This document shows positions 20,916 through 33,022 of a stretch of DNA of 33,478 nt, piece by piece. A program made the translations under genes and the position numbers. Source of the DNA: Saprospiraceae bacterium (lineage in GTDB: Bacteria > Bacteroidota > Bacteroidia > Chitinophagales > Saprospiraceae); the NCBI GenBank assembly GCA_020630475.1, contig JAHDBI010000001.1, forward strand, positions 142,378 through 175,855, read 5' to 3'. Numbering within the stretch: position 1 is the first letter of the stretch; the number at the start of each line of letters is the position of its first letter. Below the pieces are notes generated by a model. That model saw only the letters and a list, made by a program, of their open reading frames with translations. It was not told the origin of the DNA and did not search any database.

Positions 20916-20922
20916 AATTTTG
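20915..20922 (+). promoter_or_regulatory. Candidate -7 promoter element of the sortase gene
   Basis: TAATTTTG fits TAnnTTTG exactly and lies 18 bases before the ATG at 20941, giving a very short predicted leader. It shares its first base with the palindrome. The TTG at 20920, a possible earlier start, lies inside this element, which argues for the ATG. Confidence 0.4.
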
Positions 20923-20940
20923 ATAAAATTGCTTTTTTGT

Positions 20941-23900
20941 ATGAAACGGTGTCATTATTTAATACTACTCTGTCTATTTTCTTTTCAAATAGCGAATACT
21001 CAAATGGTCCAACCCAATGGCCAAGTCTTGTATGGTCCAGAGTGGATTGATTTCGAGAAGGAATATGTTAAGTTCAAGCTCGCAGAGGACGGAATTTATC
21101 GTGTTAATTTTAATGAACTACAAGCAGCAGGATTTCCAATAGAAACCGTCAGCGGCTCATCCTTGCAGTTGTTTTATATGGGTAGAGAAATTCCAATTTA
21201 TACAAGCACTAGTGGTGATTGGAGCAATAGTGATTACCTTGATTTTTATGGTCAAAAGAATAGAACTGAATTAGATAAGCACATTTATCAGGATTGGGAA
21301 TCTCAAATGCTAAATCCGGAATATAGTTTATACACGGACACTTCAGCATATTATCTAACGTGGACAGAAGGGGGAAGTAATTTAAGGATTTCCAATGAAG
21401 ACAATAATTTATCAGGAAACCTACCTAACGCAGAGAGTTATTACATTCACCACGAGGAAAATGTTTATACCAGTAAACACTACAAGCCAACACACGGAGG
21501 AGGTGATAATGTGAGGTATTCTAGCTTTGATTTTTCAGAGGGCTTTGGATCGAGCTTATCAAAGAAGCATACCATTAATATAGCGGCATCCAATATTGTC
21601 AATACTGGTCCAAATCCAAACTTAGAACTAAGGACTGGATCAAATGCCGGTTTACACATTAGCATATTGTACATTAATGACAATCTTGTTGAAACTAGGG
21701 AATATGCCGAACATGGTGTTAATGATTTTGATTTGGCATTTGACATCAACGACCTTTCATCAAATACCAAGCTTGTCATAGAGGGCACACATGATAATTT
21801 TGACAGGACAGTTGTTTCTTATACAAGATTGAATTATCCAAGAGCGTTTAAGTTTAATAATGAATCAAGCTTTAGATTCGACATTGAAGGAGGCTTTTCT
21901 AATAAGTATTTTGAAATAGAAGAATTCAATACGACAGGAGGGAATGTCCTATTTTATGACATTACTGGTTCAAAAAGATATGTTGGACAGTTACAATCTG
22001 ATGTTGTAAGATTGTTTGTGAATAGTAGCAACCAAGAAAGAAGTATTTATATCGTCAACGAGGACTCAGGAGTAAAGCAAGTTAGCTCTATTACTCCTGT
22101 TGATTTTGTTGACCTGTCTAATGTTGACCCAAATTATGTTATACTGACATCGAAACGACTAGGTAATCAAAACGCAGGGACGGAAATACAAGAATATATA
22201 GATTATCGATCATCGGATGTTGGAGGATTGTTTACTCCTCATATAGTATTCGTTGAGGATTTATATGAATTGTACAGTTATGGTGTGGAAAGGCACAGTA
22301 TTGCGGTTCGTAATTTTGGTCAACATATGTTTAGTTTTTGGACTGATCCACAGTATATTTTTATACTAGGAAAAGGAAGAGAATATAGAGAAATGAGAAC
22401 TCCAGAAGATTTGGAAGAAGCAGTAAATGCGGGATATTTTGTCCCTACATTTGGTTCTCCTGGAAGTGATAATTTGTTGTTTTCCCACATTAGCACAGCT
22501 GTTCCAAATCTTCCGGTTGGTAGACTAGCTTGTAAGACAGGTACAAATATTTCAGACTATTTAGATAAGGTTCGGCTCCATGAGTCACCAGAAGGAACAA
22601 ACTTTGATGAAGATAAATTATGGATGAAGAGAATCATTCATTTAAGTGGAGGTGATGCTGACCTACAATCAATTATCAGAAATTGGCTTGGAAATATGGA
22701 GCAAATTATTGAAAACAATCAATTTGCTGCTGATGTAATTACGTTTGAGAAAACCAGTTCAGATCCTCTTCAAACCGCTACGTCTGAACAAATCCTTACT
22801 TTGATTAATGAGGGAACAAGTATGTTAACATTTTTTGGTCACTCAGCGGTTGGAACGTTTGACTTTAGTTTAGAGGATCCTACTAAATATGAAAACTATG
22901 GAAGATATCCTGTAATATCATCGTTGGGTTGCTACTCAGGAAATATACACTCAAGTAACGATTTTGGCTTAAGTGAAAACTTTGTATTAATCAAGGACAA
23001 AGCAGCTATTGCTTTTCTAGCCGCATCTGGAACAGCTTATGCAACCACTCAATACAATTTAGGACTTACTATATATGATTTAATAGGTGGAGAAATGTAT
23101 GGAGAGTCATTGGGCAGAATTCTTAGAGAAACATTGAATCAAAACTATGCTCCGAATAATATTGCCAAGGTTACTTTAACAGAGCAATTTACTTTTCATG
23201 GTGATCCCGCGATTAAACTACACCCACAGTCTGGAGTTGATTATACTTTTGATCGATCTAAAACAGAAATAAACCCGAGCATTATTAGTAGTTCTACCGA
23301 CAGTATAGATTTTACTTTTGAAGTCATTAATATTGGATATTATATTTCCGATAGTTTAGAAATTGATGCAGAACTCACCCTGCCAAATGGGACAGTTGAA
23401 AACATAGGTCAACTTAAAATTGCGGCTCCTTCAGTTCGTGAAAGTGTCACGATTAAGGTTCCTATTTATGAGGAAAATTCTGTAGGGTTTAACACATTAA
23501 ACGTTACACTTGATCCACAAAATCTAATTGAAGAGGCGCCTAATCCTGACGCCGAATTGAATAACAAATTACTAACGGTTGATGGGACAGAAGGAATAAG
23601 ATTTTATGTATCATCAAATGATTTAAGACCTTTAGCTCCAAAGGACTTTAGCATTGTTAACGAATCTGAGATAAAGCTTATAGCAGGAACATCTAATCCA
23701 TTTTTTGATTTACAGAATTATATCATAGAAATTGATACTACTGAAAGGTTTGATAGCCCTCTTAAATTAAGAAAAGAGGGAGAGCAACAAGGAGGTTTGA
23801 TTGAATGGATTCCTGAAATCAATTTTATAAATAATACAGTATATTATTGGAGAATAACACCTGTCATTCCAAACATTGATTTAAGGTGGAGAAGTAGTTC

Positions 23901-25941
23901 ATTTTTGTACTTACAAAATGGTGAAGGGGGATGGAATCAATCACATTTTTATCAAATTAAAAAAGATATTTTTGAAAACATTGTTCTCCCTGAAGAGAGT
24001 AGGGTTTTAGAATATGCTGGTAACCTAAAAGAGGTCAGAATTAAAACAGGAGTACATCCTACAGTATGGCCTGAAATCACCATCAACAATGAGCCCTATA
24101 TTTATTTACAGTGGGGTGGAGAAGTTCAAGCAGGTGTTCAAATGACCGTAATAGATCCAATTTCAGGAGAGCCTTGGTACAATCACCCTCCAGGGGAATT
24201 AGGTAGTACTGTTTCTTCAAGTTGGGCAGATCCGTGGGCTGTTTATCCATTTAGTACAAATAATGAAACGAATAGAGAAAAGGCAATAAGCTTTCTAGAA
24301 AATGTGCCGGATGGCTTCATTGTAATTTTTATGACTATTCAGAAAACAACAACTGATTATAAACCAGAAGAGTGGGCTAACGATGAAGGGACACTTGGTA
24401 GATCTATTTATTCAATTCTAGAATCTCAAGGGGCAGAAAACATTAGAGACCTTGAACAGTTAGGATCAACGCCATATGTTTTTATTTATAAGAAAAATGA
24501 TAGTACATATCCGTCTCAAGAAATATTTGGTGATCCTTTAGAAGAAACTACAAAGACCATCAATGTTCAAGGAAAATGGGATAGAGGAGATTTAAGTTCG
24601 GTGTTGATTGGTCCATCTACGGAATGGGATAAGGTTATTTGGAATTTAGATAATCAAGATTTAATTCAAGATGAAGTTACCTTGAACATCTATGGTGTGA
24701 AAAATGATTTTTCAGAAGATTTAATATTTCCGGAAATTTCGCAAACAGAAATCCCGATTGATAATATCAACGCATCAGTATATTCTAGACTAAGATTGGA
24801 ATTGGTTACAAGAGACACGGTATCACGTACACCACCAAACCTTGATTATTGGAGAGTGTTGTATAAGTGTCTTCCAGAAGGAGCGCTCAATCCAAAAACC
24901 TCATTTAGCTTTGTAGGAGATACGCTTCAGCAGGGAGAAACATTACAATTGGATATTGCCTTTGACAATATCAGTCCACATGATATGGATAGCATCTATG
25001 TAAAATATAATATTCAAAAGAGTGATAACTCTGAGGAAAATATTTTCAAACGTTTTGCTGCCCTTCCAAAGGATGGTACAGTTAGTTTAGAATTGGACTA
25101 CGATACTCGAAATTTAGAAGGTGACAATATACTGACGATAGAGGCAAACCCCTTTAACGATCAACCAGAATTGTTTCATTTTAATAATATCGGCCAATTA
25201 CCCTTTTATATAGAAAAGGATAAACGTAATCCGTTGCTTGATGTTACTTTTGATGGAATTCACATTTTAGATGGAGACATTGTCAGTCCTAAACCAACAA
25301 TTAGGATTGAACTGAGAGATGAAAACCAGTTTTTTATTTTAGACGATATAACCTTATTTGAAGTAGCCCTTGAATCACCCAACGGAGACTACACAAACAT
25401 CCCTTTAAGTTCACCTGATCTAGATTTTATTCCTGCTCAAGAAGCCGATAACAATGTTGCGGTTTTAATTTATTCTCCAGAATTGTTAGATGAAGGGGTT
25501 TATAAGTTATATGTACAAGCAAAAGATGCATCAAATAACTTTTCAGGAGAGAACGAATATGAAGTTAATTTTGAAGTAATTCTTGAGGAGACAGTGTCAA
25601 ATGTATTTAACTATCCTAACCCATTTTCTACATCAACACAATTCATATTTACGTTAACAGGAGATCAGATTCCCGAACAGTTTAGAATTGATATATACAC
25701 GGTATCTGGAAAGGTGGTTAAACAAATTACAAGGAATGAATTAGGCCCTCTACACGTTGGAGTGAATAGAACGAATTATAAGTGGGATGGAAAAGATGAT
25801 TATGGACAAGAACTAGCTAATGGTGTTTATTTTTATCGTGTTATTACTAAAAAGGCCGATGGTTCTGATTACAAAAAATTTGAAACTAATACAGATCAAT
25901 TTTTTAAAGATGGATTTGGTAAAATGGTTATAATGCGCTAA
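20941..25941 (+). CDS. T9SS sortase-like C25 (gingipain-fold) cysteine peptidase, PorU2 type
   Basis: ATG at 20941 gives the clean signal peptide MKRCHYLILLCLFSFQIANT; the in-frame TTG at 20920 lies in a promoter motif and is less likely. N-terminal AEDGIYRVNFNELQAAGFPIETV is the usual PorU-family prodomain. The C25 domain has the catalytic His634 in TFFGHSAVG and Cys664 in SLGCYSGN. Beta-sandwich modules follow for about 850 residues. The C-terminal ~100 residues (FNYPNPFSTST ... WDGKDDYGQELANGVYFYRV) are a T9SS-type or FlgD-like sorting module. PorU cleaves the sorting domain from T9SS cargo and attaches cargo to anionic LPS at the surface. At 1666 residues it is far longer than P. gingivalis PorU (about 1160), so it fits the long PorU2-like group whose exact role is less clear. 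porV is not beside it. Confidence 0.85.
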   Translation: MKRCHYLILLCLFSFQIANTQMVQPNGQVLYGPEWIDFEKEYVKFKLAEDGIYRVNFNELQAAGFPIETVSGSSLQLFYMGREIPIYTSTSGDWSNSDYLDFYGQKNRTELDKHIYQDWESQMLNPEYSLYTDTSAYYLTWTEGGSNLRISNEDNNLSGNLPNAESYYIHHEENVYTSKHYKPTHGGGDNVRYSSFDFSEGFGSSLSKKHTINIAASNIVNTGPNPNLELRTGSNAGLHISILYINDNLVETREYAEHGVNDFDLAFDINDLSSNTKLVIEGTHDNFDRTVVSYTRLNYPRAFKFNNESSFRFDIEGGFSNKYFEIEEFNTTGGNVLFYDITGSKRYVGQLQSDVVRLFVNSSNQERSIYIVNEDSGVKQVSSITPVDFVDLSNVDPNYVILTSKRLGNQNAGTEIQEYIDYRSSDVGGLFTPHIVFVEDLYELYSYGVERHSIAVRNFGQHMFSFWTDPQYIFILGKGREYREMRTPEDLEEAVNAGYFVPTFGSPGSDNLLFSHISTAVPNLPVGRLACKTGTNISDYLDKVRLHESPEGTNFDEDKLWMKRIIHLSGGDADLQSIIRNWLGNMEQIIENNQFAADVITFEKTSSDPLQTATSEQILTLINEGTSMLTFFGHSAVGTFDFSLEDPTKYENYGRYPVISSLGCYSGNIHSSNDFGLSENFVLIKDKAAIAFLAASGTAYATTQYNLGLTIYDLIGGEMYGESLGRILRETLNQNYAPNNIAKVTLTEQFTFHGDPAIKLHPQSGVDYTFDRSKTEINPSIISSSTDSIDFTFEVINIGYYISDSLEIDAELTLPNGTVENIGQLKIAAPSVRESVTIKVPIYEENSVGFNTLNVTLDPQNLIEEAPNPDAELNNKLLTVDGTEGIRFYVSSNDLRPLAPKDFSIVNESEIKLIAGTSNPFFDLQNYIIEIDTTERFDSPLKLRKEGEQQGGLIEWIPEINFINNTVYYWRITPVIPNIDLRWRSSSFLYLQNGEGGWNQSHFYQIKKDIFENIVLPEESRVLEYAGNLKEVRIKTGVHPTVWPEITINNEPYIYLQWGGEVQAGVQMTVIDPISGEPWYNHPPGELGSTVSSSWADPWAVYPFSTNNETNREKAISFLENVPDGFIVIFMTIQKTTTDYKPEEWANDEGTLGRSIYSILESQGAENIRDLEQLGSTPYVFIYKKNDSTYPSQEIFGDPLEETTKTINVQGKWDRGDLSSVLIGPSTEWDKVIWNLDNQDLIQDEVTLNIYGVKNDFSEDLIFPEISQTEIPIDNINASVYSRLRLELVTRDTVSRTPPNLDYWRVLYKCLPEGALNPKTSFSFVGDTLQQGETLQLDIAFDNISPHDMDSIYVKYNIQKSDNSEENIFKRFAALPKDGTVSLELDYDTRNLEGDNILTIEANPFNDQPELFHFNNIGQLPFYIEKDKRNPLLDVTFDGIHILDGDIVSPKPTIRIELRDENQFFILDDITLFEVALESPNGDYTNIPLSSPDLDFIPAQEADNNVAVLIYSPELLDEGVYKLYVQAKDASNNFSGENEYEVNFEVILEETVSNVFNYPNPFSTSTQFIFTLTGDQIPEQFRIDIYTVSGKVVKQITRNELGPLHVGVNRTNYKWDGKDDYGQELANGVYFYRVITKKADGSDYKKFETNTDQFFKDGFGKMVIMR

Positions 25942-25944
25942 CGA

Positions 25945-26115
25945 ATGGTTGATTTAATGCTTTTATATATTGATCCTGGTACAGGAAGTATGATCGTTCA
26001 AATGCTGATAGCGGCATTTTTAGGCATAGCTTATTTTTTTAGATCGATCATAACGTTTCTCAAATCCTTAGTTGGAATCAAATCGCCTGAAAACGAAGAT
26101 GAAACAAATCTTTAA
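25945..26115 (+). CDS. Small membrane protein with a YIDPGTGS motif
   Basis: A 56-residue protein missed by length filters. It begins MVDLMLLYIDPGTGSMIVQM, then one membrane helix (about 16-37) and a basic/amphipathic end (FFRSIITFLKSLVGIK) with an acidic tail. The alternative ATG at 25957 gives MLLYIDPGTGS, closer to the shape I know for this family. The YIDPGTGS N-terminus is a recurring small-protein signature that I recall next to the same methyltransferase and sulfatase-like genes in Bacteroidota and other phyla. It starts 3 bases after the sortase stop and its end overlaps the methyltransferase ATG by 17 bases, so it is translated in one cassette. Function unknown; an adaptor of the following enzymes is plausible. 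Confidence 0.8.
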   Translation: MVDLMLLYIDPGTGSMIVQMLIAAFLGIAYFFRSIITFLKSLVGIKSPENEDETNL

Positions 26116-27478
26116 AAGGTCAATTTCTTCTTTTCGTGATCGAGACGGATTTGTTTTTTTTGATGAAGATGGATTAGTATTTCGGGCTGTCGCCCAAAGT
26201 TATGAAGAAACATTTGATGCAGTCACATCATCTGAACTTTACGCCAAACTTCATAAGCAAAAGCTACTAGTAAATCATACGGATCAAACTACTTCGTATG
26301 AATTAGAGGGCCATTACAAAATATTAGGTGTTCAAAAAATACCTTTTATATCTTATCCTTATGAATGGTCTTTCACTCAATTAAAAGAAGCGGCACTTCT
26401 CACACTGAAAGTCCAAAAGGAATCTTTGAATAAGGGATTTTCTTTAAAAGATGCCAATGCCTATAATGTTCAGTTTTTAAATCAACGTGCAATATTTATT
26501 GACACGCTTTCTTTTGAAAAGTTAAATCCAAATGAACCCTGGATAGCCTATCATCAGTTCTGTACCTTTTTTCTAGGTCCTTTATTGTTAATGAAATATT
26601 GTAGGATTGATGCCAATGAGTTGCTTAAAATATATTTAGAGGGAATTCCTCTCGATTTAGTAAGTCAAATGCTTCCAAGACGTACTAAGGTGATCCCATC
26701 AATCTATATGCACATTCATTTACATGCTAGATTTAGTCAATCACACGAAAGGAATGCGAATGCCACTAAAAAGCTGACCTTTTCTAAGGAAAAGCATTTA
26801 AGACTTATTGAAAACCTAACTGAAACAGTAAAGAAGATTGAGTTAAATCAAAAGGAAAGTACTTGGAATACTTACTACGAAAATGGGCTATTATCCGATG
26901 AGTATTTTAATCATAAAGTAGAAGCCATAAAATTACTAATTAACGAAATTGAATATTCTTCCGCGTGGGACATTGGATGCAACAATGGTTTTTTTAGTAA
27001 GTTATTACATCAATCAGCACAGGTGATTTCTACTGACTTAGATCATTTAACCATTGATCGACTATCTCGAGAATTGAAAAAACAAAGTAAGTATGCAAAC
27101 ATTTTACCGTTAGTAGTAAATCTATCTAATCCAAATTCTGGAACGGGATGGTTGAATAAAGAACGAGCCTCTTTTCTTGATCGGATAAATGTTGATTTGA
27201 TTTTAGCACTTGCACTCTTACATCATTTAGTGGTCTCTAATAACTTAAGTTTTGGAATGATAGCAGAGTTGTTCGCATCAAAAACAAGGAATCTAATCAT
27301 TGAATATGTTCCTAAAGATGACCCTAACGTATCTCGAATTATGGGACTAAAAAAGGATGTATTTGACGATTATTCTCACGTTGAATTTATTAATGCTTTT
27401 CAAAAGCATTTTGATATTAAAAAAGAAATAGCTTTGGAGGGTACAAAGCGAATCCTTTATCTAATGTCCAAGAAGTGA
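26099..27478 (+). CDS. Class I SAM-dependent methyltransferase with a conserved N-terminal region
   Basis: ATG at 26099 gives 459 residues; a TTG at 26072 in frame is inside the microprotein gene and is less likely. Residues ~1-210 (FRDRDGFVFFDEDG, FISYPYEWSFTQLKEAALLTL, FSLKDANAYNVQF, FIDTLSFEKL, PWIAYHQFCTFFLGPLLL) form a conserved block with kinase-like rather than methyltransferase-like motifs. The SAM domain follows: AWDIGCNNGFFSKLL (about 286-300), ISTDLDHL, the LALALLHHLV motif IV/post region and FVPKDDPNV-like ends. The target is unknown. It lies between the microprotein (17-base overlap) and the sulfatase-like gene (4-base GTGA overlap), so the three are one unit. Confidence 0.9.
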   Translation: MKQIFKRSISSFRDRDGFVFFDEDGLVFRAVAQSYEETFDAVTSSELYAKLHKQKLLVNHTDQTTSYELEGHYKILGVQKIPFISYPYEWSFTQLKEAALLTLKVQKESLNKGFSLKDANAYNVQFLNQRAIFIDTLSFEKLNPNEPWIAYHQFCTFFLGPLLLMKYCRIDANELLKIYLEGIPLDLVSQMLPRRTKVIPSIYMHIHLHARFSQSHERNANATKKLTFSKEKHLRLIENLTETVKKIELNQKESTWNTYYENGLLSDEYFNHKVEAIKLLINEIEYSSAWDIGCNNGFFSKLLHQSAQVISTDLDHLTIDRLSRELKKQSKYANILPLVVNLSNPNSGTGWLNKERASFLDRINVDLILALALLHHLVVSNNLSFGMIAELFASKTRNLIIEYVPKDDPNVSRIMGLKKDVFDDYSHVEFINAFQKHFDIKKEIALEGTKRILYLMSKK

Positions 27479-28887
27479 GAAAGCTATCATTTTTAAACAA
27501 AGCTTATTTTTTATTACTCTCTCTTACCACTTATTTTGTTTTGTTCTGTTACGAGGAGAGCTGGGCTTTTGTTTCTATATGGGAAATCTTTCTAGGCATA
27601 TTTGTTCTTGGATTTTTAGTTTGCGCAAGCTACGTTGCGTGTAAGTCAATTATAAAAGATGAAACTAAAACAGCTCTTTTTGTAATGAGCGGGTGGTTTT
27701 ATCTTATGTTTTCAGCAAAATATGCATTTTCAATTTTGCATGTTGTTGGTTGGTCTAGTTTCAACTATAAATTAATCTTAAGTCTTTTTCTCATTTTGCT
27801 TTTGCTTTTTTGGACACGACTATTTAGAGGAAAAAGTATGATAAAGTTTATGCGGTTTTCATGTTTGGTGTTTTCTGTTTTGAGTTTGTTTTTATTTTTT
27901 AAAGTAAGTACAGTAGAATTTGTAAATAGGGGTGGTTTAGAAGAGTACAGAAAGAAAGACAACAATTTTAGATTGCTTCCGCTAGAACCAAAAGAAAAGA
28001 AAATCATTCATGTACTATTCGACGGTTTTACTGGTTTTAGTGGAATGGAGAAATATTGGGATTATTCAAATGAACCATTGGCGAAAGCCCTAGAAGAAAA
28101 AAACTTTATTGTATTTAGAGACGCCAGAAGTGAGTTTGATAACACACTTTCTTCGATGACTTCTGTATTTAATATGAAACCGGATAAGCCCTTTCCAAAA
28201 TTTTTAAACAGCGTGACACACGAAAGGGTGTTAAGAAAAGAGAATTTAAATAAGGCGTTCATACCGACATATTTTAAGGAAAATGGATATACAATCGAGA
28301 ATCTTTCATTTTTTCAAATTAAAGAAGAAAAGGAGTTTTACAAATATCATCTACTACAAGAGAAAGTCCATTTTATTCGTTTCCTTTTCGATATTAGTTT
28401 GCCAGGGAATATTTTTAAAACCGTGAAAACGGACGGAACACATTTAGTGAATAATGATATACTGGATATTTTGAATAAAAAGAATTTTTCAAACAACTCA
28501 TGGACTTATGCACACTTAATGCTTCCGCACGAACCATATAACTTTTTAAGAGATGGAACGCTGAAACCTAATCGGACTGATAGACCGAAGGAAGAACTAT
28601 ATCTAGATCAATATATTTATACCTCAACCATGATCCAGGATTTAGCGGATAAGATGATCGAGAATAATCCTAATGCTATCATTGTTTTTCAAAGTGATCA
28701 CGGTTCAAGGCTATTTCAAAAAGACCCGAGTAAGGACAACGAAAAATTTCATACGCTGTTAGCCATACGATTTGGTAACGAAATAATTGACCAAAACTCC
28801 CTGGATCGATTTAATGCGACGAACACATATCGATTCATTTTAAATAAAGCATTTGGACAAAAATTAGAAATACTACCTACTGACTAG
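27475..28887 (+). CDS. Membrane-anchored sulfatase / alkaline-phosphatase superfamily enzyme
   Basis: GTG at 27475 overlaps the methyltransferase stop as GTGA; no ATG fits better. About four or five transmembrane spans fill residues 10-145, followed by a periplasmic alkaline-phosphatase-fold domain from ~175: IIHVLFDGFTG with the metal-ligand Asp183, FDNTLSSMTSVF, THLMLPHEPYNF-like AHLMLPHEPYNF and FQSDHGSR with the ligand pair Asp-His near 408. This architecture resembles LtaS and EptA, which move phosphoglycerol or phosphoethanolamine onto glycans or lipids; sulfohydrolase activity would need a formylglycine site, and I see no clear C/S-x-P-x-R. A lipid or glycan modifier is therefore more likely. 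Its stop overlaps the GT39 gene by 15 bases. Confidence 0.85.
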   Translation: MRKLSFLNKAYFLLLSLTTYFVLFCYEESWAFVSIWEIFLGIFVLGFLVCASYVACKSIIKDETKTALFVMSGWFYLMFSAKYAFSILHVVGWSSFNYKLILSLFLILLLLFWTRLFRGKSMIKFMRFSCLVFSVLSLFLFFKVSTVEFVNRGGLEEYRKKDNNFRLLPLEPKEKKIIHVLFDGFTGFSGMEKYWDYSNEPLAKALEEKNFIVFRDARSEFDNTLSSMTSVFNMKPDKPFPKFLNSVTHERVLRKENLNKAFIPTYFKENGYTIENLSFFQIKEEKEFYKYHLLQEKVHFIRFLFDISLPGNIFKTVKTDGTHLVNNDILDILNKKNFSNNSWTYAHLMLPHEPYNFLRDGTLKPNRTDRPKEELYLDQYIYTSTMIQDLADKMIENNPNAIIVFQSDHGSRLFQKDPSKDNEKFHTLLAIRFGNEIIDQNSLDRFNATNTYRFILNKAFGQKLEILPTD

Positions 28888-30153
28888 TCTATTCTTTAGC
28901 TCGACAATAGCATAACTCGCATACACTATAAAAAAGGCGTCTAAGGATATAGATCTAAACCTATTCTGAGCCATAAAGAAAAAGTAGAAACAGAAAATGG
29001 TGAATATTAGAAAAACTATCCAAAGATGTTTAAATCGATTTTCTTTGAATCCAAGATAAATTCCATAGTAGCCTAAGAGGTATATAGGGAGACTACAAAC
29101 AATGCCCATCAACCACATTCCAAAAGAGTATCGACCATAACTAAGACCTGGTCTTAGGAAACTTAAAACGTTGTGCCATTGTATTTTTAAATTCTTCGAT
29201 GGATTTTCTTTAATCCATTCTAAGGCCAATTGAAAATGAATAGGCCCTTTTTCTTTATGAGGAAGACTATTGATCTTTCCATAACCGTCAAATTCAAAAT
29301 CAGGATTAAAAATATAATTCAAATACTCATTAGGATTTTCTGTTGGTTCTCCAAAGAGATAATCGTAATAATATTGACTATGGCCGTTATGAAAAAAAGT
29401 TGTCAGCCCAAGGCTAGAGAACGTATAGATCCCGTGTATTTTTTTATTTACCAAACCATGGGGAATAGTCAATAATAAACAGATGGAAGTGAACAGTATT
29501 ACATGGGACAGTCTTTTATTAAAGCTTAGTTTCCCATTCGCGAAAAGCAAAATGAAAGCTAAAAATGGCGCATATAAAAGTATGTGTGATTTTGTTAAAA
29601 AACTTAAGCTAAAAAAAAGTGAACTTAATGTAAGTGCCTTAATATTTAGTTGTTCCTTATATAGAACAAAGAAATACATGGCAATGACAAAGTATGCCTG
29701 AAAACAGGTTTCTTGAGTAAAAGTAAAGTTGTAATAAAAGGTGAAAGGGTAGACTAAATAGATAAAGGTCGCTAACCAAGAAACACTTTTTGTTTTAAAA
29801 AGGAGTCGAGTTAATTTAAATAAAGCAACACCAGAAAGGGCTATTATAAAGAACTGATATCCTTCTAGAAAAGACATCCAAAAATCACCAAAAATGAACT
29901 TAAATGCAGCCATAGTATATGGATACAATGGAGCGATAATGAAGGCGATGAAATCTAAATCATAATTTCCCGAAAGTATTCTATCCGATAAAATGTCGTA
30001 GCGGTAAGAATCAGCAAATAACTCGAAATTGTCAGCAGGGTGAACCAACCTAAAGATATAGCGAACGCAAATAAAAGAAAAGAATACAATCAAGGATTGT
30101 TGAAAAGTACTTTGAGCGTTGAGCCAAGAATAAACTTTTCTAATCATTTTCAT
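28873..30153 (-). CDS. Polytopic GT39/ArnT-type lipid-linked glycosyltransferase
   Basis: About ten hydrophobic spans fill the protein. An acidic loop early on (HPADNFELFADSYRYDILSD, around residues 44-60 of the longer reading) has Asp residues like the catalytic DxD/ED of GT39 enzymes. Further segments such as FLTKSHILLYAPFL follow the family's conserved K/R-containing pattern. Such proteins transfer sugars from polyprenyl phosphate donors in the periplasmic leaflet. The start is uncertain: ATG at 30153 or 30147 both overlap the upstream gene's stop (14 or 8 bases), while a longer start at 30171 overlaps more. It is the last gene of the leftward polysaccharide operon. Confidence 0.8.
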   Translation of the reverse strand: MKMIRKVYSWLNAQSTFQQSLIVFFSFICVRYIFRLVHPADNFELFADSYRYDILSDRILSGNYDLDFIAFIIAPLYPYTMAAFKFIFGDFWMSFLEGYQFFIIALSGVALFKLTRLLFKTKSVSWLATFIYLVYPFTFYYNFTFTQETCFQAYFVIAMYFFVLYKEQLNIKALTLSSLFFSLSFLTKSHILLYAPFLAFILLFANGKLSFNKRLSHVILFTSICLLLTIPHGLVNKKIHGIYTFSSLGLTTFFHNGHSQYYYDYLFGEPTENPNEYLNYIFNPDFEFDGYGKINSLPHKEKGPIHFQLALEWIKENPSKNLKIQWHNVLSFLRPGLSYGRYSFGMWLMGIVCSLPIYLLGYYGIYLGFKENRFKHLWIVFLIFTIFCFYFFFMAQNRFRSISLDAFFIVYASYAIVELKNRLVSR

Positions 30154-31204
30154 GCTGTGAAAGTAAGGCATCTAAATAAAACTTCATCGTCCAATTGGTT
30201 ACTTTAAATCTTTGATATTGACCATAAAAAGGAATGGAAGAGAACAAACCTCCTTTAATGGAGCTAAAGCCTCTATTAAATTGTTTTTTCTTAATGCCAT
30301 CGATTAGTTTACGGCTAGCTTTGTTCCAGGTATCATCAGTACGCCTAGATAAACGATTAAAAACTATCGCTAGTTGTAAAGAACCCGTCACGCACTCATA
30401 GTTAACATCCCCATTCCAGTTTTTATCAAATGATCCAGGCATTTTCTTTTCTTGAGTGTAAATTTTTAAAATGGCTTTCGCCGAATTTGTAACAATCTCG
30501 AGAAGATCATCATTTTGTTCTATTTGAGCTATTTCTAAAAGTGCCCTTAAGTTGTAGGCAATGTTATGCGTCAAAGCAAAAGTTTCTTTTGGGCTAAATG
30601 CGCAAGGATAGAAATAATGATTGTCCTGTTTTAACTGAAGAAAGTAACGAAGACTATCTTCTATTTTTTGAATACGCTCATCTGAGAATTCAACAATATT
30701 CTTGGCTTCGTAAAGTGCCCAAAGTGTACGAGACAAGTATGCTGGACAATAATTATGCACATAAGTTGTCTTGCTGAATCGACCATCATCATCCATTTGA
30801 TGGAGTAACCAAACAGATAATTTTTCAATACGTGCTTTATCAATGAGCTTCGGATTAAACGTATAAAGAGCACAATACCCTAACAGAACTTGCCCATTAT
30901 CAAACACGTAGGATGAGTTGGGGTCTTCAGGGCTTCCCACAATATTGCCTTCTTTAGACTCAATGGACAGCAACCATTGATTAATGTTTTTTACTAAATC
31001 TAAAGCTGTTGAATTAGGAAAAAGTTTGTGGTAAGCAATTAAACTTGGTATTAAATACCCACTGGTCTCTGGGTATGCTGGTCCCCAACCTTTCAAGAGG
31101 TGATAATAAGAAGCAGACCCCTTACCATTTTTAATTTTAATACTTTTCTCTATCCAGCGAAATGCCAAATAAATAGATTCGTTCGATGTGGTATAGGCAC
31201 CCAT
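30140..31204 (-). CDS. Unknown alpha/alpha-toroid protein in the polysaccharide locus
   Basis: 354 residues without signal peptide or membrane span. The sequence alternates helices with Trp/Tyr-rich turns (LKGWGPAYPETSGYLIPSLI, YVFDNGQVLLGYCALY, PAYLSRTLWALYEAKN, LTHNIAYNLRALLEIA, NYECVTGSLQLAIVFNRLS), the pattern of six-hairpin toroids found in prenyltransferase-like, lanthionine-cyclase-like and glycoside or epimerase domains. A His-Asn and Asp-Asn-Gly set (for example FDNGQ, THNIAYN) could be catalytic, but no family-specific motif is recognisable. Possible roles are glycan modification or uronate epimerisation in the surface polysaccharide. Starts on the last base of the FemAB-like gene's stop (TAATG) and overlaps the GT39 start. 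Confidence 0.75.
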   Translation of the reverse strand: MGAYTTSNESIYLAFRWIEKSIKIKNGKGSASYYHLLKGWGPAYPETSGYLIPSLIAYHKLFPNSTALDLVKNINQWLLSIESKEGNIVGSPEDPNSSYVFDNGQVLLGYCALYTFNPKLIDKARIEKLSVWLLHQMDDDGRFSKTTYVHNYCPAYLSRTLWALYEAKNIVEFSDERIQKIEDSLRYFLQLKQDNHYFYPCAFSPKETFALTHNIAYNLRALLEIAQIEQNDDLLEIVTNSAKAILKIYTQEKKMPGSFDKNWNGDVNYECVTGSLQLAIVFNRLSRRTDDTWNKASRKLIDGIKKKQFNRGFSSIKGGLFSSIPFYGQYQRFKVTNWTMKFYLDALLSQHEND

Positions 31205-32166
31205 TAGAAATAAAAATCATCACTTTTAAACCAAGATATAATTCTAAGCAGCTTGTTTTTGCTTCTAAGAATTCGAAACTGTGGGACCAATTCACCACCG
31301 AAATTACGCACGAAATGTTCTATTCCTGGAATAACACTTCCTTCAAAGTCATAAGTTTGACAACCAAGTTTTTGACATTCTTTTATACTGTTCCAAACCA
31401 AATAACTTAAAGCGGCAGATTTCTTTGCATCTGGATGGAAGCAACTAGAAAAATAATAAGCGCAGCTATCATCAACAATGATGTAAACCGCAGCGAGCTT
31501 TTCTGAATTTTTGTTTTCAGCAACATAAATTTTTGACATAGATGAACTTGTAAGCAGCTTATCTATTTTCTTGAAGCTTTCCCGATCATAAGGATTCGCT
31601 TTGCCTTGAGCATCAAAACAAGTTTGTTGAAAGGACATAAATGCTTTACCTGAATTCAAAGATTTAATTTGAACCTCTTTCTCTGCTTTTTTAATATCTG
31701 TTCTTACACTTCCTTTAAAGTTTTTATATACTAGATCAAGGTCAGAAATATCCTTGATTTGATAGGTGTAACTTGTCGTTTGAGAGTAGCCTAACCATTT
31801 AAGCGGCAACCAGTTTTCTAATTGTGGATGAAACTGTTGAAATAAAAAGGCATGCTTGGGCAAATTGTTGTGTAGATCACCTAACACTTTTTTTTCAAAT
31901 GCTCCTTTAGAGGGTAAGCTAATATTCTTAGGATAATTTAGCCAAACACCACTAAAGGGGGTAAGTCGAGGCATACTTAAGTAATTCATACCAAGCATTG
32001 ACTTTATATAGAACACCCAAGACCCTTGAATTTTTCCATCTGGGTCATAAGAAATTACGACATCCCATTGTCCATTTGTAACCGCATTCATCCAAACCGG
32101 ATGAAAGTAAATTGGAAGTTTTTCCTTTCTACAAAATTCTTGATATGTCGACTTCGCACTAGACAT
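31204..32166 (-). CDS. FemAB/GNAT-like acyl- or aminoacyltransferase
   Basis: Two GNAT-like halves are visible: an N-terminal domain (PIYFHPVWMNAV, GSWVFYIKSMLGMNYLSMPRLTPFSGVWL) and a C-terminal one (FKGSVRTDIKKAEKE, AVYIIVDDSCAYYFSSCFHPDAKKSAALSYLVWNSIKECQKLGCQTYDFEGS). SALSYLVW..I..C...G...YDFEGS is the typical pattern of the FemAB-related family (BioF2-like acetyltransferases) that modify glycans or peptides. No signal peptide, so it acts in the cytoplasm, likely on a nucleotide sugar or lipid-linked intermediate. It overlaps FkbM-family gene by 8 bases (ATGTCTAG) and the toroid gene by one base. Confidence 0.85.
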   Translation of the reverse strand: MSSAKSTYQEFCRKEKLPIYFHPVWMNAVTNGQWDVVISYDPDGKIQGSWVFYIKSMLGMNYLSMPRLTPFSGVWLNYPKNISLPSKGAFEKKVLGDLHNNLPKHAFLFQQFHPQLENWLPLKWLGYSQTTSYTYQIKDISDLDLVYKNFKGSVRTDIKKAEKEVQIKSLNSGKAFMSFQQTCFDAQGKANPYDRESFKKIDKLLTSSSMSKIYVAENKNSEKLAAVYIIVDDSCAYYFSSCFHPDAKKSAALSYLVWNSIKECQKLGCQTYDFEGSVIPGIEHFVRNFGGELVPQFRILRSKNKLLRIISWFKSDDFYF

Positions 32167-33022
32167 GTTTACTTATGACATTCAATAGTTTTTTATCCTC
32201 TTTAGCCATCAAAAGAAAATCACTTTGATCGATAGAATGATCGTTTTCTAGAAGAGCTAAAACGGTAAATGATCTTAAGCGCATTTCTTTTTTTTCAATT
32301 CTAAAAAGCGAATAATTGTTGATAGAAATCAGTTGATTTATTTTATTGATTCTTTCTTTATCTATTTCACTATTCATGGGCAAAATCTCTACCAAAATTG
32401 GATTCCGTTTATTTAAACGAAAGATTCCCTCAAGAATTTTAAATTCGTGTCTTTCAACATCGACCTTTACTAAGTTGGTTTGATTAATAAAACCTAATGA
32501 TTCAACCGTACTTTTTATATCTACTGAACTAGATTTGACGATTTCTTTTTCTTTCAAATGATTAGAATCGAGGCTTGCTGCTCTATCCGTAGATTCATTC
32601 ATAAAAAAGTGAAGTTCAGCACTTCCATTGTTATTGGACAAAGCATATGGATGGAATGAAACTTGAGCAAAGTTGTTTTTTTTACTTAAAGACTCTAAGT
32701 AGCTAATGCAAGTTTTATTTGGCTCAAAGGCCCAATAGGGTAGTTTCGGATAAACAGCTTTAAATTTTAGTAAACTCTGACCTACATTGGCACCTACGTC
32801 GGTAAAACCGGAAATTTCTCCTTTAAATAAGTGCAGGATATCCACCATCCACCATTCATCCATAAAGAAATTATGTAGACCAACCCCCTTATGAATGGGT
32901 ATAGAAAAGTGGCTTTGATCTACTTGAATAGGTAGACTAAAGTGTAAAAATTTGAGTAATCCTACTTTGTTGAGGGCTTTTAGTAAAAACCTAATCACAG
33001 TTTTGCTAAGTTTGACTGACAA
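32159..33022 (-). CDS. FkbM-family SAM-dependent methyltransferase
   Basis: The SAM motif FTDVGANVGQSLLKF (73-87) and AFEPNKTC with acidic Glu100 are the FkbM pattern. The C-terminal VKVDVERHEFKILEG and RNPILVEILP are the family's VKIDVEG.E..VL.G motif. The family O-methylates sugars or other hydroxyl groups, here probably in the surface polysaccharide. No ATG is in frame before the conserved part; TTG at 33022 (stop 7 bases upstream in frame) or GTG at 32998 must be the start. It is the first gene of the leftward operon and divergent from the flippase with only 14-38 bases between starts. Confidence 0.88.
   Translation of the reverse strand: MSVKLSKTVIRFLLKALNKVGLLKFLHFSLPIQVDQSHFSIPIHKGVGLHNFFMDEWWMVDILHLFKGEISGFTDVGANVGQSLLKFKAVYPKLPYWAFEPNKTCISYLESLSKKNNFAQVSFHPYALSNNNGSAELHFFMNESTDRAASLDSNHLKEKEIVKSSSVDIKSTVESLGFINQTNLVKVDVERHEFKILEGIFRLNKRNPILVEILPMNSEIDKERINKINQLISINNYSLFRIEKKEMRLRSFTVLALLENDHSIDQSDFLLMAKEDKKLLNVISKHV

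What the first reader, a model, noticed from the sequence alone, without database searches (positions are those of the whole stretch)
25945..28887. YIDPGTGS microprotein, methyltransferase and sulfatase-like enzyme form a translationally coupled cassette behind the T9SS sortase
Seen: a 56-residue membrane protein begins 3 bases after the PorU2-like stop, overlaps a SAM methyltransferase gene by 17 bases, which overlaps an LtaS/EptA-like membrane enzyme by GTGA. Known: alkaline-phosphatase-fold membrane enzymes decorate lipids or glycans, and PorU anchors cargo to anionic LPS. Inferred: the trio modifies the surface glycan or its carrier, maybe the acceptor of the sortase. I recall this trio co-occurring elsewhere but know no function for it.
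Basis: partly seen in the sequence, partly recalled or inferred. Interest (0 to 1): 0.65.

Follow-up and report, generated by a model that had tools for sequence, protein, structure and literature searches.

The report
Microprotein–NoeA–NoeB surface phosphate-decorating cassette
Three overlapping genes encode a tiny membrane protein, a predicted kinase-methyltransferase and a membrane phosphotransferase-like enzyme that travel together across many bacterial phyla, including in the nodulation genes noeA and noeB of legume symbionts whose chemistry is unknown, which makes that chemistry directly testable.

Summary
In detail: micro 25945-26115, MT 26099-27478 (17-base overlap), sulfatase-like 27475-28887 (GTGA overlap), 3 bases after a PorU2 gene. 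The trio is a recurrent cassette: in the same 395 phylum genomes 12 carry the microprotein and 14 the MT's N-terminal domain, and all 12 lie within the 14. The 'methyltransferase' is a kinase-like domain followed by a WbdD-like methyltransferase domain. The third protein is EptA/LtaS-like with intact metal ligands. The cassette is the NoeA-NoeB pair of the Sinorhizobium host-range operon, where the microprotein sits as a 'hypothetical' gene between nodL and noeA. The NoeA kinase-methyltransferase family and its NoeB-type neighbour were already published (PMC9758233); I found no account of the microprotein. In 22 of 80 loci its motif is the N-terminus of a PF04464-type transferase, in 18 of them near a YidC/sulfatase-like protein, in 5 near PEP mutase; none of the 22 has the kinase-MT. 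So the microprotein joins two alternative phosphate-group makers to a sulfatase-fold partner. The sortase link is not supported beyond the genus. Best mechanism (about 0.45): the cytosolic enzyme makes a (methyl)phosphate group, the EptA/LtaS-like enzyme places it on a surface glycan, the microprotein couples them.

The parts
25945..26115 (+). YIDPGTGS microprotein, 56 aa: short N-terminus, Y-I-D-P-G-T-G-S-x3-Q motif, one hydrophobic helix-length stretch, charged C-terminal tail; inferred topology N-out, C-in
   Evidence: no Pfam family; homologues; motif counts
26099..27478 (+). NoeA-type protein, 459 aa: N-terminal kinase-like domain (about residues 14-246; D118, N123, D135 as catalytic-loop and DFG-like residues, R29 in the place of the ATP lysine) followed by a class I methyltransferase domain (about 251-459; H375, H376, Y259, R451)
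   Evidence: model pLDDT 92.9; WbdD best PDB match by sequence profile and by Foldseek; 31% identity to NoeA over 464 columns; R29 role from PMC9758233
27475..28887 (+). NoeB-like / EptA- and LtaS-like membrane enzyme, 470 aa: five predicted N-terminal helices of membrane length and an alkaline-phosphatase-fold domain with D183, T224, H347, H352, D408, H409
   Evidence: PF00884; model pLDDT 91.5
20920..25941 (+). PorU2-type C25 family protein upstream; a genus-level neighbour, not part of the conserved cassette

Best explanation
The trio is a NoeA/NoeB-type cassette that puts a phosphate-containing group, most likely methyl phosphate, on a surface glycan or its lipid carrier. SHOWN by sequence or structure prediction: a two-domain enzyme (kinase-like + WbdD-like methyltransferase), an EptA/LtaS-type membrane enzyme with conserved metal-ligand positions, and a single-helix microprotein that is conserved with them and is fused to, or placed beside, a different phosphate-group transferase in other bacteria. 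INFERRED: the kinase domain phosphorylates a membrane-bound acceptor and the methyltransferase domain methylates that phosphate; the EptA/LtaS-type enzyme then transfers that head group to a glycan on the outer side, in the way LtaS, EptA, GacH and BcsG use phospholipid head groups (recalled). The microprotein, N-out and C-in, holds the cytosolic enzyme at the membrane through its tail and meets the outer enzyme through its YIDPGTGS end. In other bacteria the kinase-methyltransferase is replaced by a CDP-glycerol- or CMP-phosphonate-type transferase while the microprotein and a sulfatase-fold partner stay.
For: Linkage from the microprotein side: 11 of 11 non-own hits among 395 genomes lie with an MT homologue (10 next to it, one with the sulfatase between) and 10 of 11 have the sulfatase, L023 by my profile only. 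From the MT side: 13 of 14 in the phylum have the microprotein (12, G135 at 26.7 bits) and 12 of 14 the sulfatase; in a second phylum all 7 of 299 (one is the search centre) have the microprotein, L182 only at 9 bits, and 6 of 7 the sulfatase. Swap: 22 of 80 loci have the motif fused to a PF04464-type transferase, none with MT, 18 of 22 with a YidC/sulfatase-like protein near. Of 16 genomes searched, the 8 whose locus has a GT-B partner lack the NoeA family and the 8 others have it. MT domain: WbdD is the best PDB match by profile and Foldseek. Residues needed by WbdD's methyltransferase (H132, H133, Y16, R203; PMC3482155) correspond to H375/H376 by printed alignment, and to Y259 and R451 by end offset only; all four are invariant in 48 rows, 11 further members and NoeA. 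Kinase-like domain: D-x4-N-x11-D invariant in the same 60; assigned independently as a kinase in PMC9758233. A divergent member (L128) sits behind ABC2_membrane and Wzt_C genes and before GT2 genes, the place of a WbdD-like terminator. Sulfatase: nearest solved folds are YejM/PbgA, EptC, EptA, MCR-1, then LtaP, LtaS, GacH, BcsG, with sulfatases mixed in.
Against: The kinase-like domain has no PDB sequence match and no credible Pfam match (best E 0.12); hhalign to APH kinases gives only 6.5% probability, although the catalytic loop is in register; no fold search of this domain alone was run. In VIA-align the methyltransferase domain is closest to NodS, MePCE and ChlM (Z 17.9-18.1; N-, phosphate- and carboxyl-methylating by recall), with WbdD 1.5 lower at rank 42, and HH is common in class I methyltransferases (recalled), so a phosphate acceptor is not proven. 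Donor and acceptor are unknown. Sulfatase relatives occur without the other two genes in G005 (two copies) and G045, and some loci with micro and MT lack the sulfatase (L026, L060). Several YidC/sulfatase-like proteins miss Pfam's sulfatase cut-off (5 of 7 scanned). The microprotein could simply be a membrane anchor. No complex was predicted.
Confidence: 0.45

Rival explanations
1. WbdD-like capping: the kinase-methyltransferase acts directly on the growing end of a polyprenol-linked glycan at the inner face of the membrane (methyl-phosphate cap), and the EptA/LtaS-like enzyme adds a second, separate substituent (phosphoethanolamine or phosphoglycerol from ordinary phospholipids) outside.
For: WbdD and Klebsiella O7 ORF6 do this chemistry on glycans (PMC3482155 passages; PMC11231755 section 11 part 1); a divergent family member sits next to Wzm/Wzt-type genes (L128); one trio (L181) lies near a GDP-mannose dehydratase and a cytidylyltransferase.
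Against: The chain ends with the methyltransferase fold, so no coiled-coil ruler follows it (model; no coiled-coil program was run); no ABC transporter family is among the 25 of 28 families shown for 41 upstream genes (downstream genes were not scanned); it does not explain why the microprotein and a sulfatase-fold partner stay when the kinase-methyltransferase is replaced.
Confidence: 0.3
2. The cassette makes or edits a small secreted signal or a lipid rather than a bulk surface glycan; in rhizobia it decorates Nod factors, and the window copy modifies an unknown lipid or oligosaccharide.
For: noeA and noeB are host-range nodulation genes in one operon with nodL and are hypothesised to modify Nod factors (PMC9048898 passages); a truncated noeA coincides with a nodulation-deficient strain (PMC4053727 passages).
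Against: The NoeB-type active site and the microprotein motif are inferred to lie outside the cytoplasm, while Nod factor decoration is said to be cytoplasmic (PMC9758233); the carriers found are mostly not rhizobia.
Confidence: 0.15
3. One reading: the trio modifies the LPS acceptor of the T9SS sortase PorU2.
For: PorU2 lies 3 bases upstream in the window and directly upstream in congener G001.
Against: No C25 hit in loci L001-L112 (no positive control in the set); upstream genes differ by lineage, M42 peptidase in 18 of 41 scanned; the cassette occurs in phyla where T9SS is not expected (recalled).
Confidence: 0.04

Closest known systems
nodL-noeA-noeB operon of Sinorhizobium/Ensifer (host-range nodulation genes)
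   Same: Same gene order microprotein - NoeA - NoeB with an overlapping microprotein/noeA junction; NoeA 31% identical over 464 columns; NoeB has all seven checked ligand/catalytic positions; microprotein YLDPGTGS.
   Different: nodL is upstream there, PorU2 here; NoeB and P0003 are hardly alignable by BLASTP (E 0.012) and are joined only by the profile (69 bits).
Lani_1194 kinase-methyltransferase family (PMC9758233, Legionella pan-kinome)
   Same: Kinase domain first, methyltransferase second; Arg in the place of the ATP lysine; D, N, D catalytic residues; alkaline-phosphatase-fold neighbour (passages).
   Different: The passages read do not describe a YIDPGTGS microprotein ('microprotein' and 'small protein' occur 0 times) or a PF04464/phosphonate alternative; they do not say what the neighbour Lani_1193 is.
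WbdD of E. coli O9a and ORF6 of Klebsiella O7 (methyl-phosphate chain terminators)
   Same: Kinase plus methyltransferase in one chain; WbdD's methyltransferase domain is the closest PDB match by profile and by Foldseek.
   Different: Domain order reversed (WbdD: methyltransferase, kinase, coiled coil); no sequence match of our kinase-like domain to the PDB; microprotein and phosphotransferase-like partner here.
EptA / LtaS / GacH / BcsG head-group transferases
   Same: Same fold (Z 17.5-20, rmsd 3.4-4.8, about 248-271 residues), Asp/Thr/Asp/His positions, five membrane-length helices.
   Different: Sequence identity 8-14%; substrate unknown; true sulfatases reach similar Z.
DltX microprotein of teichoic-acid D-alanylation
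   Same: Membrane microprotein in the operon of a transfer machine, with an invariant Tyr on the outer side, found free or as a motif in partner enzymes (PMC12148441 passages).
   Different: No sequence relation claimed; the DltX motif is C-terminal and carries acyl groups; nothing shows that the Tyr here carries anything.

Membership tests
NoeA/NoeB cassette | NoeA homology over the full length | tested here: met
   31% identity over 464 columns, E 4e-63; family profile 411 bits for NoeA
NoeA/NoeB cassette | NoeB-type alkaline-phosphatase-fold membrane protein next to it | tested here: met
   PF00884 in P0003; the SULF profile finds NoeB at 69 bits; pairwise BLASTP only E 0.012
NoeA/NoeB cassette | YxDPGTGS microprotein directly upstream of noeA | tested here: met
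   P0005 between nodL and noeA; 61 plasmid records carry it
WbdD-type methyl-phosphate chain terminator | methyltransferase domain related to WbdD | tested here: met
   profile E 1.2e-5; Foldseek ranks 1-3; VIA-align rank 42, Z 16.6, rmsd 2.8, 181 residues
WbdD-type methyl-phosphate chain terminator | domain order methyltransferase then kinase | tested here: not met
   kinase-like domain is N-terminal
WbdD-type methyl-phosphate chain terminator | kinase domain related to that of WbdD | tested here: inconclusive
   no PDB sequence match at E<=10; no fold search of the isolated domain
WbdD-type methyl-phosphate chain terminator | C-terminal coiled-coil ruler | tested here: not met
   the chain ends with the methyltransferase fold at residue 459; no coiled-coil program was run
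Protein-kinase-like fold | catalytic Asp, Asn and DFG-type Asp | tested here: met
   D118, N123, D135 in 48 of 48 aligned rows, 11 of 11 further members and NoeA
Protein-kinase-like fold | structural match of the isolated N-terminal domain to a kinase | not tested
EptA/LtaS-type phosphotransferase | alkaline-phosphatase fold with membrane helices | tested here: met
EptA/LtaS-type phosphotransferase | metal ligands and Thr nucleophile present | tested here: met
   D183 49/49, T224 48/49, D408 49/49, H409 45/49; roles assigned from recalled EptA/LtaS chemistry
EptA/LtaS-type phosphotransferase | transfer of a lipid head group to a glycan or lipid A | not testable with these tools
   needs an assay
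DltX-like shuttle | covalent loading of the invariant Tyr | not testable with these tools
   invariant Tyr seen (largely by construction of the search pattern); loading needs mass spectrometry
T9SS sortase accessory | regular linkage to a C25 sortase | tested here: not met

The most novel reading that the evidence does not exclude
The YIDPGTGS microprotein is the shared coupling part of a whole class of trans-membrane phosphate-decorating machines: it links interchangeable inner enzymes (NoeA-type kinase-methyltransferase, or PF04464-type glycerophosphate/phosphonate transferase) to an outer EptA/LtaS-like transferase, and its invariant outer tyrosine (N-terminal after signal-peptide cleavage in several lineages) carries or positions the phosphate group, a phosphoryl counterpart of DltX. 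The nod box n5 operon of Sinorhizobium would then be nodL-[microprotein]-noeA-noeB and the unsolved noeA/noeB chemistry would be methyl-phosphate transfer.
Probability: 0.15. Interest if true: 0.88.

Novelty: new variant of a known kind. Interest (0 to 1): 0.62.

Why it matters
noeA and noeB have been known as host-range nodulation genes since 1995 (Ardourel et al., seen only as a cited reference; not held), they are still described as hypothesised to modify Nod factors, and a 2022 paper calls the Legionella relative functionally uncharacterised. The present evidence gives each protein a testable chemical role, adds an overlooked gene, and ties the set to phosphonate and teichoic-acid-like decoration in other phyla through a shared microprotein domain. 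If correct, it defines a general module for putting phosphate-containing groups on cell surfaces.

Tried and rejected
Sortase link: tested and dropped. 'Plain methyltransferase': dropped, since the first 246 residues are a separate conserved domain. 'Sulfatase': I prefer a phosphotransferase because of the membrane-length helices, the Thr at the nucleophile position and the top folds; true sulfatases are mixed into the same list (rank 5) and top the sequence-profile list (Endo-4-O-sulfatase E 1.5e-8, LtaP only E 3e-5), so a sulfatase is not excluded. hhalign of the N-terminal domain against APH kinases: best score of five comparisons, but probability 6.5%. PDB sequence search with that domain: nothing at E<=10; Pfam: best E 0.12, unrelated families. 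No protein kinase is among the 50 rows; that list was filled by the methyltransferase domain. The weak MT hit in L067 (25 bits, short opposite-strand ORF; its genome has no match) was dropped: the script gave 52 of 58, I use 51. L022 and L049 are the same locus, so the 71 free copies are 70 distinct. Mantel correlation of MT and sulfatase distances over 32 loci, r 0.82, 0 of 2000 permutations: may reflect shared phylogeny only. Two weak matches with internal stops (G337, G429) were ignored. Paper searches for the motif, phosphonate + sulfatase + glycerophosphotransferase, phosphonate + PntC + sulfatase, CDP-glycerol + phosphonate + YidC, methylphosphate + phosphoethanolamine transferase, phosphatidylmethanol and noeA + noeB gave listings in which I saw no description of the microprotein or of this combination; they cover only open-licence PMC papers and I read passages of eight of them.
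Full report
What is there. The window carries, on the + strand, a 56-codon microprotein gene (25945-26115), a 459-codon gene (26099-27478) and a 470-codon gene starting with GTG (27475-28887), overlapping by 17 and 4 bases, 3 bases behind a PorU2-type gene. The gene downstream on the other strand (28873-30171, PMT_2 family) overlaps the end of the third gene by 15 bases; a similar gene lies at the same place in the congener.

Is the trio a unit? I searched 395 genomes of the phylum with the microprotein: 12 have it, including the window's own. The 11 others all have an MT homologue, in ten beside the microprotein and in one (L024) with the sulfatase between; 10 of 11 have the sulfatase, of which L023 only by my own profile (174.7 bits; Pfam finds no family there). 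I then searched the same 395 genomes with a profile of the MT's N-terminal domain only: 14 hits, containing all 12 (chance of that overlap 3.6e-21). Of the two extra genomes, G135 has a divergent microprotein (YNDPGSMS, 26.7 bits), MT and sulfatase; G278 has a divergent MT homologue (200.9 bits) with neither, standing directly behind ABC2_membrane and Wzt_C genes and followed by GT2 glycosyltransferase genes. In a second phylum, reached through the betaproteobacterial locus L112, 7 of 299 genomes have the domain (one is the centre of the search); all 7 have a microprotein nearby, although L182's scores only 9 bits and rests on its motif, and 6 of 7 have the sulfatase. Gene order varies (micro-MT-sulfatase, micro-sulfatase-MT, sulfatase-MT-micro in L198), so linkage is not merely an inherited order. 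Against this, sulfatase relatives exist without the other two genes in G005 (two copies) and G045.

Wider survey. The loci come from Bacteroidota, Clostridia, Chloroflexi, Acidobacteria, Omnitrophota, a PVC bacterium, Pseudomonadota, a Treponema and others. In 58 the microprotein is free-standing; in 22 (24 ORFs) it is the N-terminus of a protein of mostly 410-480 residues. Of the 58, 51 have the MT within 2.5 kb (I dropped one spurious 25-bit hit from 52) and 48 have the sulfatase within 5 kb. The seven without MT are L056 (contig ends), L061 and L104 (sulfatase next to it; their genomes hold a NoeA-type gene elsewhere), and L062, L067, L091, L107 (a GT-B gene nearby).

The alternative partner. 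The fused proteins carry a domain like the CDP-glycerol:poly(glycerophosphate) glycerophosphotransferases: PF04464 over its cut-off in 3 of 3 scanned (L077, L095, L102), and 422-590 bits with a profile built from L077 in all 24 ORFs. Of the four separate GT-B genes, L091 passes PF04464; L062 and L067, both cut by contig ends, have no Pfam match and rest on the profile (168 and 321 bits), L107 was not scanned. In 18 of 22 fused loci one ORF within 6 kb matches both a YidC-like and a sulfatase-like profile, in 15 within 300 bases. By Pfam, seven of these were scanned: 60KD_IMP is over its cut-off in 7, Sulfatase in 2 (L077, L102), below cut-off in 4 and absent in 1. PEP mutase, the first enzyme of phosphonate synthesis, is in 5 of the 22 loci and in 2 of the 4 with a separate GT-B; L091 has the run GT-B, iron alcohol dehydrogenase, TPP enzyme, PEP mutase with a cytidylyltransferase domain. 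None of the 22 fused loci has the NoeA-type gene, and of 16 genomes searched whole the 8 whose locus has a GT-B partner lack it while the other 8 have it (I did not search those other 8 for GT-B). PMC6697681 (passages) says that most phosphonate capacity is directed to cell surfaces, with CMP activation, and names LicD-like phosphotransferases; 'sulfatase' and 'glycerophospho' do not occur in its main text.

The microprotein. All 71 free-standing (70 distinct) and 24 fused copies tallied read YxDP; this is largely guaranteed by the search pattern. Not guaranteed by it: a Gln at motif position 12 in 71 of 71 free copies and 0 of 24 fused ones. In nine of the 71 the residues before the Tyr end in A-x-A behind a hydrophobic stretch, like a signal-peptidase site, as in the rhizobial one. 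Together with the basic tail and the expected cytosolic place of the GT-B domain in fusions, this points to an N-out, C-in single helix with the motif on the outer face. This is inference; topology was not tested.

The MT is a kinase-like/methyltransferase fusion. The full-length model is confident (pLDDT 92.9). Its C-terminal domain matches WbdD best by profile against PDB sequences (E 1.2e-5) and by Foldseek (ranks 1-3). VIA-align orders differently: NodS (Z 18.1, rmsd 2.6, 177 residues), the methylphosphate capping enzyme 6dcc (Z 18.0, rmsd 3.3, 188) and ChlM lead, and WbdD is rank 42 (Z 16.6, rmsd 2.8, 181). PMC3482155 (passages) reports that WbdD variants H132A, H133A, R203A and Y16F still phosphorylate but do not methylate. 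H132/H133 fall on our H375/H376 in the printed alignment (numbering by my count); R451 and Y259 correspond by the end offset only. All are invariant in 48 aligned members, 11 later ones and NoeA. HH is frequent in class I methyltransferases (recalled), so this is suggestive, not diagnostic. The N-terminal half has D118, N123, D135 invariant in the same 60 proteins with kinase spacing, while K117 varies; the predicted secondary structure follows the kinase order from the second strand on (my reading). Sequence searches with this half find nothing credible, and hhalign to APH kinases aligns exactly that loop but at 6.5% probability. PMC9758233 (passages) independently assigns the homologous Lani_1194/NoeA domain as a kinase with Arg in place of the ATP lysine (our R29, by my reading).

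The third protein. Model pLDDT 91.5, five membrane-length helices then an alkaline-phosphatase fold. Closest solved structures are YejM/PbgA, EptC, EptA, MCR-1, with LtaP, LtaS, GacH and BcsG within three Z units (Z 17.5-20.3); true sulfatases are mixed among them and lead in the sequence-profile search. Ligand positions are conserved: D183 49/49, T224 48/49, H352 49/49, D408 49/49, H409 45/49.

Identity: NoeA and NoeB. A translated search of plasmids with the MT found 65 records, of which 57 Sinorhizobium, 3 Rhizobium and 1 Ensifer. In Ensifer canadensis pT173b the order is nodL, a 'hypothetical protein' of 71 aa, noeA, noeB 'sulfatase-like hydrolase/transferase'. That hypothetical protein reads VPAHAYLDPGTGSMLVQ in its first half, overlaps noeA by 23 bases and is found in 61 records with the same organism counts; in the 60 rows listed it is 'hypothetical protein' or carries no annotation of its own (PLSDB's gene table is incomplete). 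NoeA is 31% identical to the window protein over 464 columns and keeps every position checked except K117; NoeB keeps all seven, though BLASTP of NoeB against P0003 is only E 0.012. A Singulisphaera plasmid and a Deltaproteobacterium plasmid have the same three genes, NCBI calling the Singulisphaera sulfatase an LTA synthase family protein. [quoted passage not shown] a truncated noeA coincides with a nodulation-deficient strain (PMC4053727, passages). The original 1995 paper is not held.

How it most likely works. Three facts need one account: an inner enzyme that should make a phosphate or methyl phosphate, an outer enzyme of the head-group-transferase fold, and a microprotein that stays when the inner enzyme is exchanged for a CDP-glycerol/CMP-phosphonate-type transferase. 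The simplest account is a donor made inside and used outside, with the microprotein as the coupling part. The exchange is shown; donor, acceptor and direction are inferred. The main rival is direct WbdD-like capping of a glycan end inside the cell, with the outer enzyme acting separately; G278's homologue behind Wzm/Wzt-type genes speaks for glycan as the acceptor at least in that branch. DltX gives a precedent for a membrane microprotein with an invariant outer Tyr that is free in one system and a fused motif in others (PMC12148441, passages); here nothing shows that the Tyr is loaded.

Novelty. The kinase-methyltransferase family, its NoeA kinship and its alkaline-phosphatase-fold neighbour are in print (PMC9758233), so the window trio is not a new kind. 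I found no account of the microprotein family, its place in the nod operon, its fusion to PF04464 transferases, or the swap between the two partners (searches; open-licence PMC only). PMC9758233 reports an undescribed neighbour, Lani_1193, in 65% and the NoeB-type Lani_1195 in 38% of 816 neighbourhoods; Lani_1193 may be this microprotein, and the 38% is a lower sulfatase linkage than in my samples.

Noticed in passing
L195:4757-4972 (Ensifer canadensis pT173b); 61 plasmid records: An overlooked YLDPGTGS microprotein gene between nodL and noeA, overlapping noeA by 23 bases; the nod box n5 operon appears to have four genes.
   Followed up: yes
L077:9236-11884 and 17 other fused loci: Proteins with a YidC-like (60KD_IMP) domain and a sulfatase-like domain beside microprotein-PF04464 fusions; the purpose of an insertase-like domain on such an enzyme is unexplained.
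   Followed up: partly
L128:2260-5864 (G278): A divergent NoeA-type protein directly behind ABC2_membrane and Wzt_C genes, without microprotein or sulfatase found in the 10.5 kb fetched: a possible glycan chain terminator of this family.
   Followed up: partly
L177:3776-10085 (G713): A complete trio directly behind an AMP-ligase and a PEP_mutase-family protein, so the two kinds of module may meet.
   Followed up: no
window 28873-33022, - strand: A run of genes for a PMT_2 mannosyltransferase-like protein, an unassigned protein, a FemAB-like protein and an FkbM methyltransferase, convergent with the trio; may be part of a surface-glycan locus.
   Followed up: no
L196 (Sinorhizobium medicae ml29): noeB is not listed in the gene table and its open frame begins later (6557) than in L195 (6381), so this copy may be damaged or mis-called.
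   Followed up: no
G005 (L008, L009) and G045 (L010): Relatives of the sulfatase-like protein with no microprotein or MT found in the fetched 14-15 kb: the outer enzyme also works in other settings.
   Followed up: partly
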